Shown piece by piece: positions 9,662 to 17,842 of a stretch of DNA of 64,000 nt. The notes under the pieces are model-generated. The model did not search any database. It had not been told where the DNA came from and worked only from the letters and a program-made list of their open reading frames with translations. How positions within the stretch are numbered: the first letter of the stretch is position 1; every line of letters begins with the position of its first letter. The position numbers and the translations under genes were made by a program. The stretch is from IMG/VR virus record IMGVR_UViG_3300042555_002820, positions 1 to 64,000 of that record; one strand, given 5' to 3'. This stretch comes from a virus.

Positions 9662-10114
9662 ATGAAAAGAATTTATTTGGATGACATTCGTACACCTCTA
9701 TCTAACGATTGGATTGTTGTTAGAAATTACGACGATTTTGTTAATAAAGTAACTGAGATTGGTCTCGGTGAAATTGAAACAATCTCATTGGACCATGATT
9801 TGGGTGATACCGCAGTGAATGAGTATTTTGCAAATGTATCCCCAAACTACAAATTGGATTACGATAATATTAAGGAAAAAACCGGATATGATTGTACAAA
9901 ATGGATTGTAGATTATTTTTATGAAATGAATCCTGATAGGATTGAGATGAGCCGTTCCAAAAAGGGTGCTAGTAGTATTAAATTTCCTTTGGTAGTCGTA
10001 CACTCGGCCAATCCTATCGGCTCGGCAAATATTATGGGGTATATTAATAATTTTTTGATGAATGAAAATAAACCTCAAACTTGTATTAGGGTTAATATTG
10101 ACCATACGGTTTAA
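9662..10114 (+). CDS. Cyclic-phosphate-processing receiver (cREC) domain protein
   Basis: The 150-residue protein matches the stand-alone receiver-like cREC family. It has LDDIRTP at the N-terminus, WIVVRNYDDFV, then SLDHDLGD (D44, H45, D46), followed by TGYDCTKW and a VVVHSANPIGSANI strand-helix. This family has been proposed to act on cyclic phosphate ends or linkages in nucleic-acid repair or conflict. Stand-alone copies in phages could help repair RNA cleaved by host defence nucleases. The enzymatic role is from family proposals, not shown here. A leaderless host-type promoter suggests early expression. Confidence 0.7.
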   Translation: MKRIYLDDIRTPLSNDWIVVRNYDDFVNKVTEIGLGEIETISLDHDLGDTAVNEYFANVSPNYKLDYDNIKEKTGYDCTKWIVDYFYEMNPDRIEMSRSKKGASSIKFPLVVVHSANPIGSANIMGYINNFLMNENKPQTCIRVNIDHTV

Positions 10115-11247: not shown

Positions 11248-11280
11248 TGCTTGTCTGGTGAGTATTTATCCTTATATTTG
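11248..11280 (+). promoter_or_regulatory. Promoter 1 of 3 upstream of the giant RNA
   Basis: TTG at 11251-11253 and TATATTTG at 11273-11280, spacer 19. The short transcript region after it has a CACCT/AGGTG hairpin and ends in an A-rich run. Confidence 0.7.
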
Positions 11281-11350
11281 TAAAAGATTTGACACCTACA
11301 GGTGATGAAAGATACTCGGAAAGTTAAATCAAAAAAAAAATACAAATAAA

Positions 11351-11382
11351 TTTGGTAGATTGAAAAAGTCACCATATATTTG
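11351..11382 (+). promoter_or_regulatory. Promoter 2 of 3 upstream of the giant RNA
   Basis: TTTG at 11351-11354 and TATATTTG at 11375-11382, spacer 20. The downstream sequence (AAAGGATTTGAGAC) resembles that after promoter 1 (AAAAGATTTGACAC), suggesting duplication. Confidence 0.7.
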
Positions 11383-11448
11383 TAAAGGATTTGAGACGGA
11401 CAACGATTAAGATACAAGTCTCGAATCTTAAAAAAAGTTTAAGAAAAA

Positions 11449-11480
11449 TTTGACAGAACGAAAAATTTGACTTAAATTTG
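11449..11480 (+). promoter_or_regulatory. Promoter 3 of 3, for the giant RNA
   Basis: TTTGACA at 11449 and TAAATTTG at 11473-11480, spacer 20. It is the promoter closest to the structured RNA. Confidence 0.75.
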
Positions 11481-11484
11481 TAAA

Positions 11485-12375
11485 ACAATTCGGGAATGAC
11501 CGAAGAAGTTCTTTGAAAAGTAAGATTATCCATTCAGTGAAAGTAACCTTCGGGTGATGACAACTGATAAAAGATAATGGGCCGTGTATGGTCCTTAAAT
11601 AAACTACGAAAGTAGGATAAAGTGACCTCCCCCGTGTTGAGGAGGTTGCGGTTTCGAAAGGAACTCGAGTACACAAGTGGGATATCACAAGACCTTTAGT
11701 ACCGAGGGTAACACTGTAGGGAAAGTGGTCAGGTGACTTGGCAAAGTGGATTGTCAAGTTGAGGTGGGAACACCAACAAGAATAACCCATAGGAATCAAG
11801 TAAGAAACGTAGCTCCAACTACACAATTGCGGATTCCAATACCGAAGGGGATTTAAAACCGAAAGGTAAGGTAGAGAACGAGTGGTGTCGCTACTACCCC
11901 TAAAGATGACCTACCAAGGTCTCTTTATGAAGTAATCTGAAAGTATGGAGATAGGGATATCTCACGGAGTAGTTTAGTATTTCGTCGCCCAAAAGGAGAC
12001 GGAGCTTAAGGTGGACCACTACTCTGACACATCCACGACACAAATCTAAAATTATGAACAATAATTAAAGGAAAAGTGTCCATCAGGTTTGAGTGAAAGG
12101 TCACTACACAGTCACGGGTTGTCCGTGGCACAGAAAGACCCCAAGTCTAACTGTAGTTTTACGAAAAACCTTTAATCCCGCAAGGATGAACTGGGGTGGC
12201 AACCTCGGAAAGAGTTAAGTAATAAGAGAGTAACTTAAACCTCAAGGAGTGGTAAACCTAAAAGACCGTGACTGAGAAATACTTCTCAAAAGGAAGTGGA
12301 TAAGAAGGGAAACAATAATCCTTCAAAAGGTTCTCACTCAAAGCTGTAATCTCAGGCTTAGTTCAACTATTACAT
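11485..12375 (+). ncRNA. Giant ornate structured RNA (about 0.9 kb), GOLLD/ROOL-like candidate
   Basis: About 890 bases contain no plausible gene but many compact hairpins. These include CTAC-GAAA-GTAG (11604), ACCTCC/GGAGGT (11625), GGTG-GGAA-CACC (11763), GGAATC/GATTCC, ACC-GAAA-GGT (11858), GACCT/AGGTC (11908) and GAGATA-GGGA-TATCTC (11948). Further on are AGTGA/TCACT (12092), CACGG/CCGTG (12113), TTAAGT/ACTTAA, GAGAA/TTCTC (12274) and GAAGG/CCTTC. Several loops are GNRA tetraloops, typical of large folded RNAs. It sits between strong promoters and an initiator tRNA that ends in a terminator, matching the phage, tRNA-adjacent setting of GOLLD and ROOL RNAs. Class membership is inferred. 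Confidence 0.75.
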
Positions 12376-12450
12376 CGCAACTTAGAGCAGAGGCCAGCTC
12401 GTCAGGCTCATAACCTGAAGGTCGGAGGTTCGAATCCTTCAGTTGCAACA
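12376..12450 (+). tRNA. Initiator tRNA-fMet (CAU)
   Basis: The cloverleaf has C1 opposite A72 (unpaired), the hallmark of bacterial initiators that permits formylation and blocks elongation. The D stem GAGC/GCTC has A11-U24, also an initiator feature. The anticodon arm is TCAGG-CTCATAA-CCTGA, so the usual three G-C pairs are reduced to two with an A-U pair. T arm GGAGG/CCTTC, discriminator A, then CA. The D arm to variable loop is very close to the bacterial fMet consensus. It is co-transcribed with the giant RNA. Confidence 0.85.
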
Positions 12451-12456
12451 AATCAC

Positions 12457-12480
12457 AGGTGGGGAAACCCACCTTTTTTA
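12457..12480 (+). terminator. Terminator of the giant RNA and tRNA-fMet transcript
   Basis: AGGTGGG-GAAA-CCCACCT followed by T6. The GAAA-capped stem starts seven bases after the tRNA. Confidence 0.9.
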
Positions 12481-12992: not shown

Positions 12993-12997
12993 TTTAC

Positions 12998-13374
12998 GGT
13001 GGAGGTATGGGGAGTCGAACCCCTTCCTACTCATTTTAACTACTAAGCCCTACATGTTTAGGTCAACATCGCTTCTCAATGTTCCGAAATATTGGTTTTT
13101 GAGCTCTCAAAACCACAAACGAGTTGTGCTTCTTTTCGGGTAGAAACCACACCACAGTACGAGCTTCTGTTCCAAGGTTGTATGCTTACCGACCCGTTTT
13201 GTAGGCTAATCCTAGATTAGGCTACTGAAATGTTCTCCTCAGTACGGATAAGACCAACTGCAGAGAGTTTGTTGATAACGTTGCCGTTTATCGTGTGAAC
13301 CAGTTTTACAAGGTTAGTTCAGCCTCGACATGCTCCGAGTAATCAACCATGCTAGTCAATTCCAAGTTACCCCC
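12998..13374 (-). ncRNA. ssrA: Transfer-messenger RNA (tmRNA)
   Basis: On the minus strand the 5' end GGGGGTA pairs with 3' TACCTCC to form a seven-base acceptor, followed by A and CC(G). The 3' T arm is GGGG-TTCGACT-CCCC. The conserved 5' core (TTGGAATTGACTAGCATGG, then GCATGTCGAGG) matches bacterial tmRNA. After a TAAAC context the resume codon is probably GGC, encoding a 22-residue tag GNVINKLSAVGLIRTEENIS plus VA, then TAA, inside a near-perfect GTAGCCTAATC/GATTAGCCTAC hairpin. tmRNA rescues stalled ribosomes. The tag lacks the usual ALAA-type degradation end. Bacteroidota tmRNAs normally encode a short Gly-starting tag. Confidence 0.9.
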
Positions 13375-15780: not shown

Positions 15781-15808
15781 AAAAAAGGGGATTTTACTCC
15801 CCTTTTTT
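15781..15808. terminator. Bidirectional terminator
   Basis: AAAAAGGGG/CCCCTTTTT with an eight-base loop. It separates the convergent 15403 and ClpC-like genes and overlaps the last codons of the latter. Confidence 0.85.
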
Positions 15809-17842
15809 CTTTCTTGTCTTTTTCACAGGACTTATTGTGGTAACCTGTTTAATTTTAATTTCTTTGGTTTCTACATACAATTGGTAATCACCATTTTCTA
15901 CAATGTTACCTTTTAATACTTCTTCAGAAATATAGTCCTCAATCTTGTCTTGGATTGCTCTCTTTAAAGGACGAGCCCCGAATTGTTCATCGAAACCAAC
16001 CTCAGAAATTAAATCGGTTACACTCTGTTCATATGTGATGTTGTATTTCAGACCAACTAATCTATTACAAAGTTTATCAAGCTCAAGTTTAACAATTTGT
16101 TGAATATCTTCTTTTTTCAAACTATTGAAGACAATAACTTCATCAATACGGTTTAAGAATTCTGGAGCAAAAAACTTCTGAAGTTCTTTTTTCAAAACGT
16201 CTCTTTTATACTCCTCCTCAACGTAAGTGTTAACACTCTTAAATCCGATACCAGCGCCAAAATCTTGTAATTTTTTCGCCCCAATATTCGATGTCATAAT
16301 AATCACACAATTTTTGAAATTAATTTTACGACCCAAACCATCTGTAACGTGACCGTCATCCAATACCTGTAATAGAGTTGAGAAAATGTCTTTGTTTGCC
16401 TTTTCAATTTCATCAAATAGAATCACAGAATATGGTTTGTTTTTAACTTGTTCTGTCAACTGACCACCTTCATCATACCCAACATATCCTGGAGGAGCTC
16501 CAATCAAACGAGATATTGTATGTTTTTCTTGAAACTCTGACATATCAATTCTGATAAGGTTATCCTCACTACCAAAAATTTGTTTTGCAAGTTCTTTGGC
16601 TAGTAATGTTTTTCCGATGCCTGTTGAACCTAAGAATATAAATGAACCAATTGGTTTGTTTGGGTCCTTGATACCCAATCTATTTCTTCTGATAGATTTT
16701 GCAATTTTTGCAACAGCCGGTGCCTGACCGATAACCCTACCGGATAAATTTTCCTCAAGTTTAGTTAACAACTTAGTTTCGTCAGAATCTAATTTAGAAA
16801 TTGGAATTTTGGTCATGTTAGAAACGGTTTCATAAACCAATTCTGTTGTGATTTCTCTTTTCTGTGAGATTAATTCTTCCTCGAATTTCTTTTTCTCATC
16901 TTCCAACTTACTAATAATTTTCTTTTCCTTATCTCGTAAGTTTGCAGCCTCTTCATAGTTCTGTTTTTTAACAACCTCAATTTTTTGTTGTTTAATATCG
17001 GTTGCTTGTTGTTTCAATTGGTCGATAATTTCAGGAACCTTAATCTCAACTTGACTACGAGCTCCTACTTCATCAATAATGTCGAAAGCTTTATCAGGAA
17101 ACTCACGGTCGGTTATATATCGTTCTGCCAAATCAACACAAAGATTAAGAATTTCATCAGAGTATTTCACTTTATGGTAAGTTTCATACTTATCCTTAGC
17201 ATTCTTAAGAATCAAAAATGTTTCTTTTTTTGTTGCCGAATCAACAACAACTTTTTGGAATCTTCGTTCGAGGGCACCATCCTTTTCAAAATTCTTTCTA
17301 TATTCATCCAATGTTGTTGCTCCAACACATTGAATTTCTCCTCTAGCAAGTGCTGGCTTAAAGATATTGGACGCATCCAAAGAACCCGATGAATTTCCGG
17401 CCCCAACTATTGTATGAATCTCATCGATAAAGACAATAATGTTTGGAGAGGATTGTAGTTCTTCAATAATAACTTTCATTCTCTCTTCAAATTGACCACG
17501 GTATTTTGTACCGGCAACAATTGATGTCATGTCTAAAGACACAATTCTTTTGTCCATCAAATTTCTTGGACAATCTCCCTCAAAAATTTTAATGGCAAGA
17601 CCCTCAACAATTGCGGTTTTACCACAACCAGGTTCGCCAATAATAATTGGGTTATTTTTCTTTCTTCTAGATAAAATTTGGGCAATTCTTGTTATTTCTC
17701 TTTCTCTACCTATAACAGGGTCAAGTTTACCTTCTTCAGCCAACTTTATCAAATCTCTACTAAAATTATCAAGGACTGGAGTTGACGAATCTCCTTTTGG
17801 TTTGCTTTTGCTTTTTCCGTCATTATCCATTGGTTCAGTCAT
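15794..17842 (-). CDS. ClpC/ClpA-family AAA+ unfoldase without N-domain
   Basis: The 682-residue protein has two AAA+ modules. The first shows Walker A GEPGCGKT (about residues 69-76), Walker B VFIDEIH and arginine-finger context ALERRFQ. A middle region with a UVR-like motif (NYEEAANLRDKEKKI) follows. The second module has Walker A GSTGIGKT, Walker B ILFDEIEKA, sensor segment IIMTSNIG and the C-terminal Clp D2-small domain (FGARPLKRAI). ClpC unfolds proteins and feeds them to ClpP. This copy lacks the N-terminal double Clp repeat that normally binds adaptors. It may redirect host ClpP or remodel phage proteins. It stands alone on the minus strand. Confidence 0.9.
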   Translation of the reverse strand: MTEPMDNDGKSKSKPKGDSSTPVLDNFSRDLIKLAEEGKLDPVIGREREITRIAQILSRRKKNNPIIIGEPGCGKTAIVEGLAIKIFEGDCPRNLMDKRIVSLDMTSIVAGTKYRGQFEERMKVIIEELQSSPNIIVFIDEIHTIVGAGNSSGSLDASNIFKPALARGEIQCVGATTLDEYRKNFEKDGALERRFQKVVVDSATKKETFLILKNAKDKYETYHKVKYSDEILNLCVDLAERYITDREFPDKAFDIIDEVGARSQVEIKVPEIIDQLKQQATDIKQQKIEVVKKQNYEEAANLRDKEKKIISKLEDEKKKFEEELISQKREITTELVYETVSNMTKIPISKLDSDETKLLTKLEENLSGRVIGQAPAVAKIAKSIRRNRLGIKDPNKPIGSFIFLGSTGIGKTLLAKELAKQIFGSEDNLIRIDMSEFQEKHTISRLIGAPPGYVGYDEGGQLTEQVKNKPYSVILFDEIEKANKDIFSTLLQVLDDGHVTDGLGRKINFKNCVIIMTSNIGAKKLQDFGAGIGFKSVNTYVEEEYKRDVLKKELQKFFAPEFLNRIDEVIVFNSLKKEDIQQIVKLELDKLCNRLVGLKYNITYEQSVTDLISEVGFDEQFGARPLKRAIQDKIEDYISEEVLKGNIVENGDYQLYVETKEIKIKQVTTISPVKKTRKKKGE

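What the first reader, a model, noticed from the sequence alone, without database searches (positions are those of the whole stretch)
11485..12375. 0.9 kb ornate non-coding RNA co-transcribed with an initiator tRNA
No gene fits this stretch, yet it folds into at least a dozen perfect hairpins, several with GNRA tetraloops. It has three strong promoters upstream and ends at tRNA-fMet plus a terminator. Size and tRNA-adjacent phage setting match GOLLD/ROOL-type giant RNAs; it may be a divergent member or a new class.
Basis: partly seen in the sequence, partly recalled or inferred. Interest (0 to 1): 0.9.

Follow-up and report, generated by a model that had tools for sequence, protein, structure and literature searches.

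The report
Phage GOLLD RNA with initiator-like tRNA
A virus of bacteria carries a member of a known family of giant cage-forming RNAs, apparently made as one transcript with a start-codon-type tRNA, and its gene neighbourhood offers a concrete clue to what this unexplained RNA family may do.

Summary
Window 11485-12375 (+) is a full-length GOLLD RNA: its 3' half scores 321 bits against Rfam RF02032 (cut-off 150) over the whole model. It is neither ROOL nor a new class. Beyond Rfam: in 28 full-length sequences (window plus 27 relatives) the 5' "cap" half has 102 pairs in 20 helices, 97.5% of cells paired, 65 pairs with double-sided changes. Loops fitting published inter-subunit contacts are present. 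Three Bacteroidota-type promoters precede it; an initiator-like tRNA and a terminator follow. Such a tRNA abuts GOLLD in 10 of 55 cap-type clusters, on either side: 10 of 17 abutting tRNAs are initiator-like, against 3 of 145 others on the same contigs. In two contigs the ring half was swapped as a cassette. A phage tmRNA lies near GOLLD in 26 of 64 clusters, in three arrangements (here convergent downstream), against 0 of 109 unmatched control stretches; many also carry a ClpC-like unfoldase. Verdict: new member of a known kind. Its function is unproven; the neighbourhood points to translation.

The parts
11251..11280 (+). Bacteroidota-type promoter 1 (TTG...TAnnTTTG)
   Evidence: regex; 0/2000 Markov sequences have 3 or more such sites
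11352..11382 (+). Bacteroidota-type promoter 2
11450..11480 (+). Bacteroidota-type promoter 3, next to the RNA start
   Evidence: start position inferred
11485..12375 (+). GOLLD RNA, full length (both ends inferred; 3' end from expected cleavage at the tRNA)
   Evidence: Rfam 321 bits for 11965-12358; alignment A1 covers 11482-12360
11489..11504 (+). 5'-terminal hairpin; several relatives have a hairpin of other sequence here (by eye, not counted)
11505..11964 (+). 5' (cap) domain, not covered by RF02032; 20 covarying helices counted within about 11579-11963
   Evidence: 102 pairs, 97.5% of 2855 cells paired, 65 pairs with double-sided changes; 0/500 shuffles on four measures, 15/500 on the fifth
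11584..11588 (+). GUGUA loop, pairs with UACAC 11670-11674 (pseudoknot or kissing contact)
   Evidence: helix 2, 28/28 sequences pair, 2 of 5 pairs covary, 3 never vary
11670..11674 (+). UACAC partner of 11584-11588
11965..12358 (+). 3' (ring) domain, complete RF02032 match
12033..12068 (+). variable A/U-rich linker (limits approximate; disordered cage-interior linker in the solved env-38 structure)
   Evidence: alignment A1; analogy to PMC12286853 section 7
12070..12071 (+). GG, pairs with CC 12141-12142; fits the published L20 kissing contact (bridge B7; names assigned by me)
   Evidence: both pairs form in 28/28 (GC 23, UA 5; GC 17, CG 11)
12141..12142 (+). CC in a hairpin loop, partner of 12070-12071
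12100..12104 (+). GUCAC, pairs with GUGAC 12268-12272
   Evidence: 140/140 cells paired, 21 double-sided changes, covariation score 0/500 shuffles (7/500 and 36/500 on two other measures)
12268..12272 (+). GUGAC partner of 12100-12104
12180..12181 (+). GC in the loop that fits L21a (published self-kissing bridge B8, GC/CG switch)
   Evidence: by eye: GC in 23; the 5 huge-phage-group sequences have CG, one column further on
12199..12200 (+). GC in the next loop (fits L21b, bridge B9)
   Evidence: by eye: GC in 28/28
12376..12449 (+). tRNA-Met(CAT), initiator-like (C1xA72, A11:U24)
12457..12480 (+). intrinsic terminator after the tRNA
   Evidence: stem 12457-12474 with T tail
12997..13374 (-). 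phage tmRNA, convergent with GOLLD; tag read as GNVINKLSAVGLIRTEENISVA
   Evidence: Rfam RF00023 93 bits; tag frame chosen by me; ARAGORN missed the gene but reads a near-identical tag in relative L035
15794..17842 (-). ClpC/ClpA-type AAA+ unfoldase, same strand as the tmRNA; IGF motif at residue 532

Best explanation
The stretch is a full-length GOLLD RNA of a phage that very likely infects Bacteroidota. SHOWN BY SEQUENCE: family membership of the 3' half; a covarying 5' half; pairing loops that fit known inter-subunit contacts; the order promoters - GOLLD - initiator-like tRNA - terminator. INFERRED: one transcript is made, and tRNA maturation (RNase P at the tRNA's 5' end) frees the GOLLD 3' end; in relatives with the reverse order, 3' tRNA processing would free the GOLLD 5' end. 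INFERRED BY HOMOLOGY: chains assemble into the 14-chain RNA-only cage solved for another GOLLD, 5' halves as caps and 3' halves as rings. PROPOSED FUNCTION (about 0.3 on its own): during lytic growth the cage acts on the translation machinery, holding or trapping ribosomes, subunits or initiator tRNA, so that the phage can steer host translation; the neighbouring tRNA, tmRNA and Clp unfoldase would belong to the same translation-control island. The confidence below is for identity, anatomy and co-transcription, with cage assembly as the expected consequence; it is not for the proposed function.
For: RF02032 321 bits, full model. 28 full-length sequences aligned: 121 of 181 pairs with compensatory change. 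Structure-blind test: 28 of the top 50 covarying column pairs out of 183,229 lie on the predicted structure. Cap domain: 97.5% of cells paired against 36-44% for slid structures; covariation score 0/500 shuffles. Contact loops. 3' pseudoknot. Promoters. tRNA. Initiator-like tRNA abuts GOLLD in 10 of 55 clusters, 4 after and 6 before; 10 of 17 abutting against 3 of 145 other tRNAs, Fisher p 2e-9, kinship ignored. tmRNA near GOLLD in 24 of 55 cap-type and 2 of 9 other clusters, in 0 of 109 viral stretches without GOLLD by profile and ARAGORN. From PMC12286853 (abstract, sections 7, 8, 9 and 19 and passages seen): GOLLD is a 14-mer cage; env-38 GOLLD lies downstream of a Met-tRNA; tRNAs are sometimes in the linker; ribosomes are reported to bind GOLLD in pull-downs; expression rises during lysis.
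Against: No transcript, processing or assembly data for this RNA. The tRNA has two, not three, G-C pairs in the anticodon stem. 38 of 55 clusters show no abutting tRNA (some contigs lack a flank; with both flanks held, 35 of 49), so the tRNA is not obligatory. On the ring tree the after-GOLLD tRNA label is no more clustered than shuffled labels, 3 changes against 3.0. The 21 convergent tmRNAs all lie in one 38-row branch of that tree, so synteny by descent explains much of that arrangement. Control stretches were not matched for phage size or tRNA richness, and GOLLD phages are tRNA-rich. PMC7567579 (one passage) reports a Lactobacillus prophage GOLLD dispensable for phage production.
Confidence: 0.9

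Rival explanations
1. GOLLD packs or protects a small cargo (a phage tRNA, nucleotides, a protein) inside the cage; the tRNA and tmRNA neighbours only mark a place where phages collect RNA genes.
For: The cage is hollow and tRNAs are sometimes in the linker (PMC12286853 section 9); four of nine clusters without the window's cap show a tRNA match inside the ring stretch (L034, L036, L041, L143). Other tRNAs also abut GOLLD (Gly in 3 clusters, Leu in 1, one undetermined). GOLLD phages are tRNA-rich, so tmRNA may come with that.
Against: The abutting tRNA is initiator-like far more often than other tRNAs on the same contigs (10/17 against 3/145). This window's linker, about 36 nt and A/U-rich, holds no tRNA.
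Confidence: 0.35
2. The initiator-like tRNA is only a processing signal: RNase P or the 3' tRNA nuclease trims the GOLLD end, with no joint function.
For: Short spacing suits end maturation: 15-23 nt after, or 3-7 nt before, in 9 of 10 clusters, 95 nt in the tenth (measured from inferred ends). Many GOLLDs without a tRNA end at a terminator hairpin instead (by eye).
Against: Any tRNA would serve as a processing site, yet the initiator-like type is preferred.
Confidence: 0.3
3. It is a ROOL RNA or a new giant-RNA class.
Against: RF02032 321 bits over the complete model; no ROOL match at E<=1.
Confidence: 0.01
4. The structure is incidental to a coding or purely regulatory region (e.g. a long leader for the tRNA or a downstream gene).
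For: Three tandem promoters upstream; an antisense ORF is open in the window.
Against: Compensatory changes across the 0.9 kb; antisense frame open in 2 of 28; several relatives have GOLLD with its own terminator (by eye).
Confidence: 0.01

Closest known systems
GOLLD RNA (Rfam RF02032); env-38 GOLLD 14-mer cage, PMC12286853
   Same: Full match to the 3' model; ~880 nt; 5' and 3' domains with a variable linker; loops that fit bridges B7, B8 and B9; phage setting; Met-tRNA next to the gene
   Different: Here the tRNA is downstream and initiator-like; env-38 is described as downstream of a Met-tRNA. Whether the 5' fold is the same as env-38's was not tested (its sequence was not on hand)
GOLLD of huge phage LR745206 (L162) and contigs L125, L136, L150, L152
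   Same: Same cap and ring domains (59-65% identity to the window); initiator-like tRNA abutting; ClpC-type gene 2-4 kb downstream in L125, L136 and L162
   Different: tRNA upstream of GOLLD (3-7 nt); CG instead of GC in the L21a-like loop; Clp on the GOLLD strand; no tmRNA found in the stretches held (L150 and L152 hold under 500 nt downstream)
ROOL RNA
   Same: Large ornate phage RNA near tRNAs that forms a cage (PMC12286853, abstract and passages)
   Different: No covariance-model match
Phage tmRNAs, e.g. of huge phages (PMC7162821, passages only)
   Same: A virus-borne tmRNA gene
   Different: Here next to GOLLD, with a conserved 21-22-residue tag; no SmpB found in the record

Membership tests
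GOLLD (RF02032) | Covariance-model score above curated cut-off | tested here: met
   321 against 150 bits, positions 1-416/416
GOLLD (RF02032) | Covarying secondary structure of the 3' domain | tested here: met
   pairs; pseudoknot 140/140 cells
GOLLD (RF02032) | Large structured 5' domain, total over ~800 nt | tested here: met
   102 pairs, 20 helices; ~880 nt
GOLLD (RF02032) | L20 kissing contact and self-complementary loops (bridges B7, B8, B9) | tested here: met
   loop names assigned by me from the paper's text, no coordinates compared
GOLLD (RF02032) | Same 5'-domain fold as the solved env-38 RNA | not tested
GOLLD (RF02032) | Phage or prophage location near tRNAs | tested here: met
   virus record; tRNA starts 16 nt past the ring profile's end
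GOLLD (RF02032) | Assembly into a 14-chain cage | not testable with these tools
   needs mass photometry or cryo-EM
GOLLD (RF02032) | Expression rising during lysis | not testable with these tools
   no RNA data
ROOL | Match to the ROOL covariance model | tested here: not met
   none listed at gathering score or at E<=1
Initiator tRNA | Mismatch at 1:72 | tested here: met
   C1xA72
Initiator tRNA | A11:U24 in the D stem | tested here: met
   by eye on the sequence
Initiator tRNA | Three consecutive G-C pairs in the anticodon stem | tested here: not met
   UCAGG/CCUGA: two G-C pairs plus A-U; hence 'initiator-like' only
tmRNA (RF00023) | Covariance-model score above cut-off; G3-U70; tag frame ending in a stop | tested here: met
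   93 against 47 bits; G3-U70 by eye; tag frame

The most novel reading that the evidence does not exclude
GOLLD cages are a translation-control organelle of phages. The initiator-like tRNA on the same transcript is a working partner (cargo or ribosome-docking handle), favoured at either end of the RNA. The cage is coupled to phage trans-translation: tmRNA sits beside GOLLD in several GOLLD lineages and in three different arrangements, in one large clade with its own long conserved tag and a ClpC-like unfoldase.
Probability: 0.2. Interest if true: 0.88.

Novelty: new member of a known kind. Interest (0 to 1): 0.55.

Why it matters
GOLLD cages are among the largest RNA-only assemblies known and their function is open (PMC12286853). 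This locus adds three handles: a favoured neighbour (initiator-like tRNA), a recurring tmRNA neighbour that in many phages comes with a Clp unfoldase, and natural ring swaps showing that cap and ring are exchangeable modules. Each can be tested directly. The covariation model of the 5' half extends what Rfam covers.

Tried and rejected
Rejected: ROOL or a new class; a coding region; generic sigma-70 promoters as evidence (no excess). The long-range pairs 72-76 with 1020-1024 proposed by RNAalifold were dropped before counting: one double-sided cell in all. Considered and not supported: that ring swaps make incompatible cages; L018 and L019 keep the window's contact-loop letters.

The L005 query found no phage record; L139, L036 and L162 found 4, 10 and 2. 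Most proteins beside GOLLD matched no family. No SmpB or ClpP at E<=0.1 in the phage record, which may be incomplete; no further Rfam family in its other 44,982 bases.

Counts use 64 clusters of complete rings at 97% identity: 127 of 145 ring-bearing loci entered and 18 incomplete rings were left out; 55 clusters carry the cap type. Neighbours are pooled over cluster members. The 28 rows of A1 were chosen for holding both halves: 29 references passed (six exact duplicates, two truncated and the shorter matches left out), and L020, near-identical to the window, was dropped. The cap structure was predicted from the same alignment, which favours it over slid versions. Clusters L009 and L342 were not scanned with Rfam. 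83-nt RF00023 matches in L002 and L005 were not counted.

Full report
WHAT IS THERE. The window belongs to a 107,982-base virus record that holds one GOLLD match. At 11965-12358 (+) Rfam finds GOLLD, RF02032, at 321 bits (cut-off 150) over the entire model. RF02032 covers only the 3' half; 11485-11964 is the 5' half, which Rfam does not model. No other large-RNA family was listed even at E<=1.

IS THE 5' HALF REAL. Three motif scans of IMG/VR and one phage hit gave relatives; profile searches found the ring in 53 loci and the cap in 42 at E<1e-5, the window's own included. Twenty-eight full-length sequences, window included, were aligned. RNAalifold predicts 181 pairs, 121 with at least one compensatory change. 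For the cap alone, pseudoknot included: 102 pairs, 20 helices, 97.5% of 2855 cells paired, 65 pairs and 486 cells with double-sided changes. On four measures 0 of 500 shuffles reach the observed value; on the fifth, further pair types, 15 of 500 do. Structures slid by 1-3 columns drop to 36-44% paired. In a test that knows no structure, 28 of the top 50 covarying column pairs among 183,229 lie on the predicted structure.

CONTACT LOOPS. Kretsch et al. (PMC12286853; abstract, sections 7, 8, 9 and 19 and passages seen) solved the env-38 GOLLD as a 14-chain cage. They describe a kissing contact between loop L20 and a junction, and two self-pairing loops, one of which switches GC and CG. Here 12070-12071 pairs with loop bases 12141-12142 in 28 of 28 sequences through three dinucleotide pairs. 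The loop at 12180-12181 has GC in 23 sequences and CG, one column on, in 5; the next loop keeps GC in 28 (loops by eye). The loop names are my assignment; no coordinates were compared. Two further pairings covary: 11584-11588 with 11670-11674 and 12100-12104 with 12268-12272. Whether they act within or between chains is unknown.

TRANSCRIPTION UNIT. Three Bacteroidota-type promoters (motif recalled) lie in the 251 nt upstream; 0 of 2000 Markov sequences have three. The tRNA-Met(CAT) begins 16 nt past the ring profile's end, and a terminator follows. The tRNA has the C1xA72 mismatch and A11:U24 of initiators but two of three anticodon-stem G-C pairs. The host is inferred from the promoters; the portal protein's hits include Flavobacterium phages at 37.6% identity, but the best of 2492 records is a Microcystis phage.

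tRNA CENSUS. A fourth scan widened the set to 145 ring-bearing loci of 254 viral stretches; 127 complete rings form 64 clusters at 97%, 55 with the window's cap type. A tRNA abuts GOLLD in 17 of 55: 12 are CAT and 10 initiator-like (CAT, mismatch at 1:72, six stem pairs), 4 after GOLLD and 6 before it. With both flanks held: 14 of 49 abutting, 9 initiator-like. Elsewhere on the same contigs 3 of 145 tRNAs are initiator-like (Fisher p 2e-9, kinship ignored). On a quick ring tree with several long branches the trait needs 6 changes; the before-GOLLD label is clustered (3 changes, shuffled mean 5.9), the after-GOLLD label is not (3, shuffled mean 3.0). The tRNA is not obligatory.

MODULE SWAP. 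L018 and L019, from different IMG records, carry caps 96.7% and 92.1% identical to the window but rings only 71% identical, while their rings match each other at 99.3%. Identity falls at the linker and rises again in the last 37 columns. L018's tRNA differs too. This fits exchange of the ring as a cassette, as the separate domains of the solved cage would allow. The contact-loop letters are kept.

tmRNA AND CLP. A tmRNA lies at 12997-13374 (-), 93 bits, cut-off 47; ARAGORN missed it. A profile from such tmRNAs finds it downstream of GOLLD in 21 of 55 clusters, convergent in 21 of 21, 138-4287 nt away. Rfam scans of the other clusters (all but L009 and L342) add three cap-type clusters with tmRNA some 340-390 nt upstream on the GOLLD strand (L298, L321, L338) and two clusters of other 5' type with tmRNA about 1.9 kb downstream on the GOLLD strand (L329; L034, which matches the alpha and permuted tmRNA families). 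In all: 26 of 64 clusters, three arrangements. Of 109 viral stretches without GOLLD none has a tmRNA by profile or ARAGORN; these controls are not matched for phage size or tRNA richness. Tags of the convergent type, read in an aligned frame, are 21-22 residues in 36 of 37 rows (18 distinct tags); 35 end in VA, L299 in VAA, and L019 is cut short. ARAGORN gives the same tag for L035 and L131 but other frames for L319 and L361. The other lineages have other tags, e.g. 26 residues ending AVAA in L321. Seven host tags from eight Bacteroidota genomes have 9 residues ending YALAA or YAMAA; one genome gave none and one gave a second, overlapping call. A ClpC/ClpA-type unfoldase lies further on the tmRNA strand; it has an IGF motif, taken as ClpP-docking from recalled knowledge. 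Of 31 cap-type clusters with 5 kb or more downstream, 13 have profile-detected tmRNA and Clp, 0 tmRNA only, 2 Clp only, 16 neither. The Clp gene occurs in 31 of 145 GOLLD loci and 0 of 109 controls. In the huge-phage group it lies on the GOLLD strand.

MECHANISM. Identity about 0.99; co-transcription with the tRNA about 0.9; cage assembly by homology about 0.85; action on translation about 0.3, from the initiator-like tRNA preference, the tmRNA and Clp neighbours, and the published statement that ribosomes bind GOLLD in pull-downs (PMC12286853 section 9). Rivals are a general cargo cage, and the tRNA as a mere processing signal. Against strong claims stands the report that one prophage GOLLD was dispensable for phage production (PMC7567579, one passage).

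KNOWN OR NEW. GOLLD in phages and near tRNAs is known (PMC12286853; PMC6582537 passages), and env-38 itself is noted as downstream of a Met-tRNA. In the listings (open-licence library; 'initiator' was not a search term) and the passages read I saw no paper linking GOLLD as a class to initiator tRNA or to neighbouring tmRNA. So: a new member of a known kind, with new context.

Noticed in passing
12997-13374 (-): Phage tmRNA beside GOLLD with a 22-residue tag ending in ISVA; relatives share a 21-22-residue tag pattern unlike the 9-residue YALAA/YAMAA tags of seven Bacteroidota genomes.
   Followed up: partly
15794-17842 (-): ClpC/ClpA-type unfoldase with an IGF motif; present in 13 of 13 clusters that have the convergent tmRNA and 5 kb or more downstream. 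No ClpP or SmpB found in the phage record.
   Followed up: partly
L298:1028-1383, L321:1363-1751, L338:2455-2778, L329:4789-5097, L034:11219-11698: tmRNAs near GOLLD in other arrangements: upstream on the same strand (first three) or about 1.9 kb downstream on the same strand (last two; L034 matches the permuted type).
   Followed up: partly
L018:115-1007 and L019:2515-3388: GOLLD with a window-like cap but a foreign ring half (71% identity; the two rings 99.3% alike), from different IMG records: natural cassette exchange.
   Followed up: yes
11281-11336 and 11383-11440: Each of the two upstream promoters is followed by a short stretch with inverted repeats and then an A-rich run, seen also in close relatives (by eye). 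Possible small RNAs or leader elements.
   Followed up: no
L034:13906-13977, L036:589-659, L041:1213-1276, L143:1002-1068: tRNA matches inside the ring stretch of four GOLLDs without the window's cap type, like the published linker tRNAs.
   Followed up: no
L002:5274-5356 and L005:1188-1270: 83-nt matches to both ends of the tmRNA model near GOLLDs without the window's cap; perhaps unusual tRNA-like genes.
   Followed up: no
9662-10114 (+): Small protein with a cyclic-phosphate-processing receiver domain (PF20274), about 1.4 kb upstream of GOLLD.
   Followed up: no
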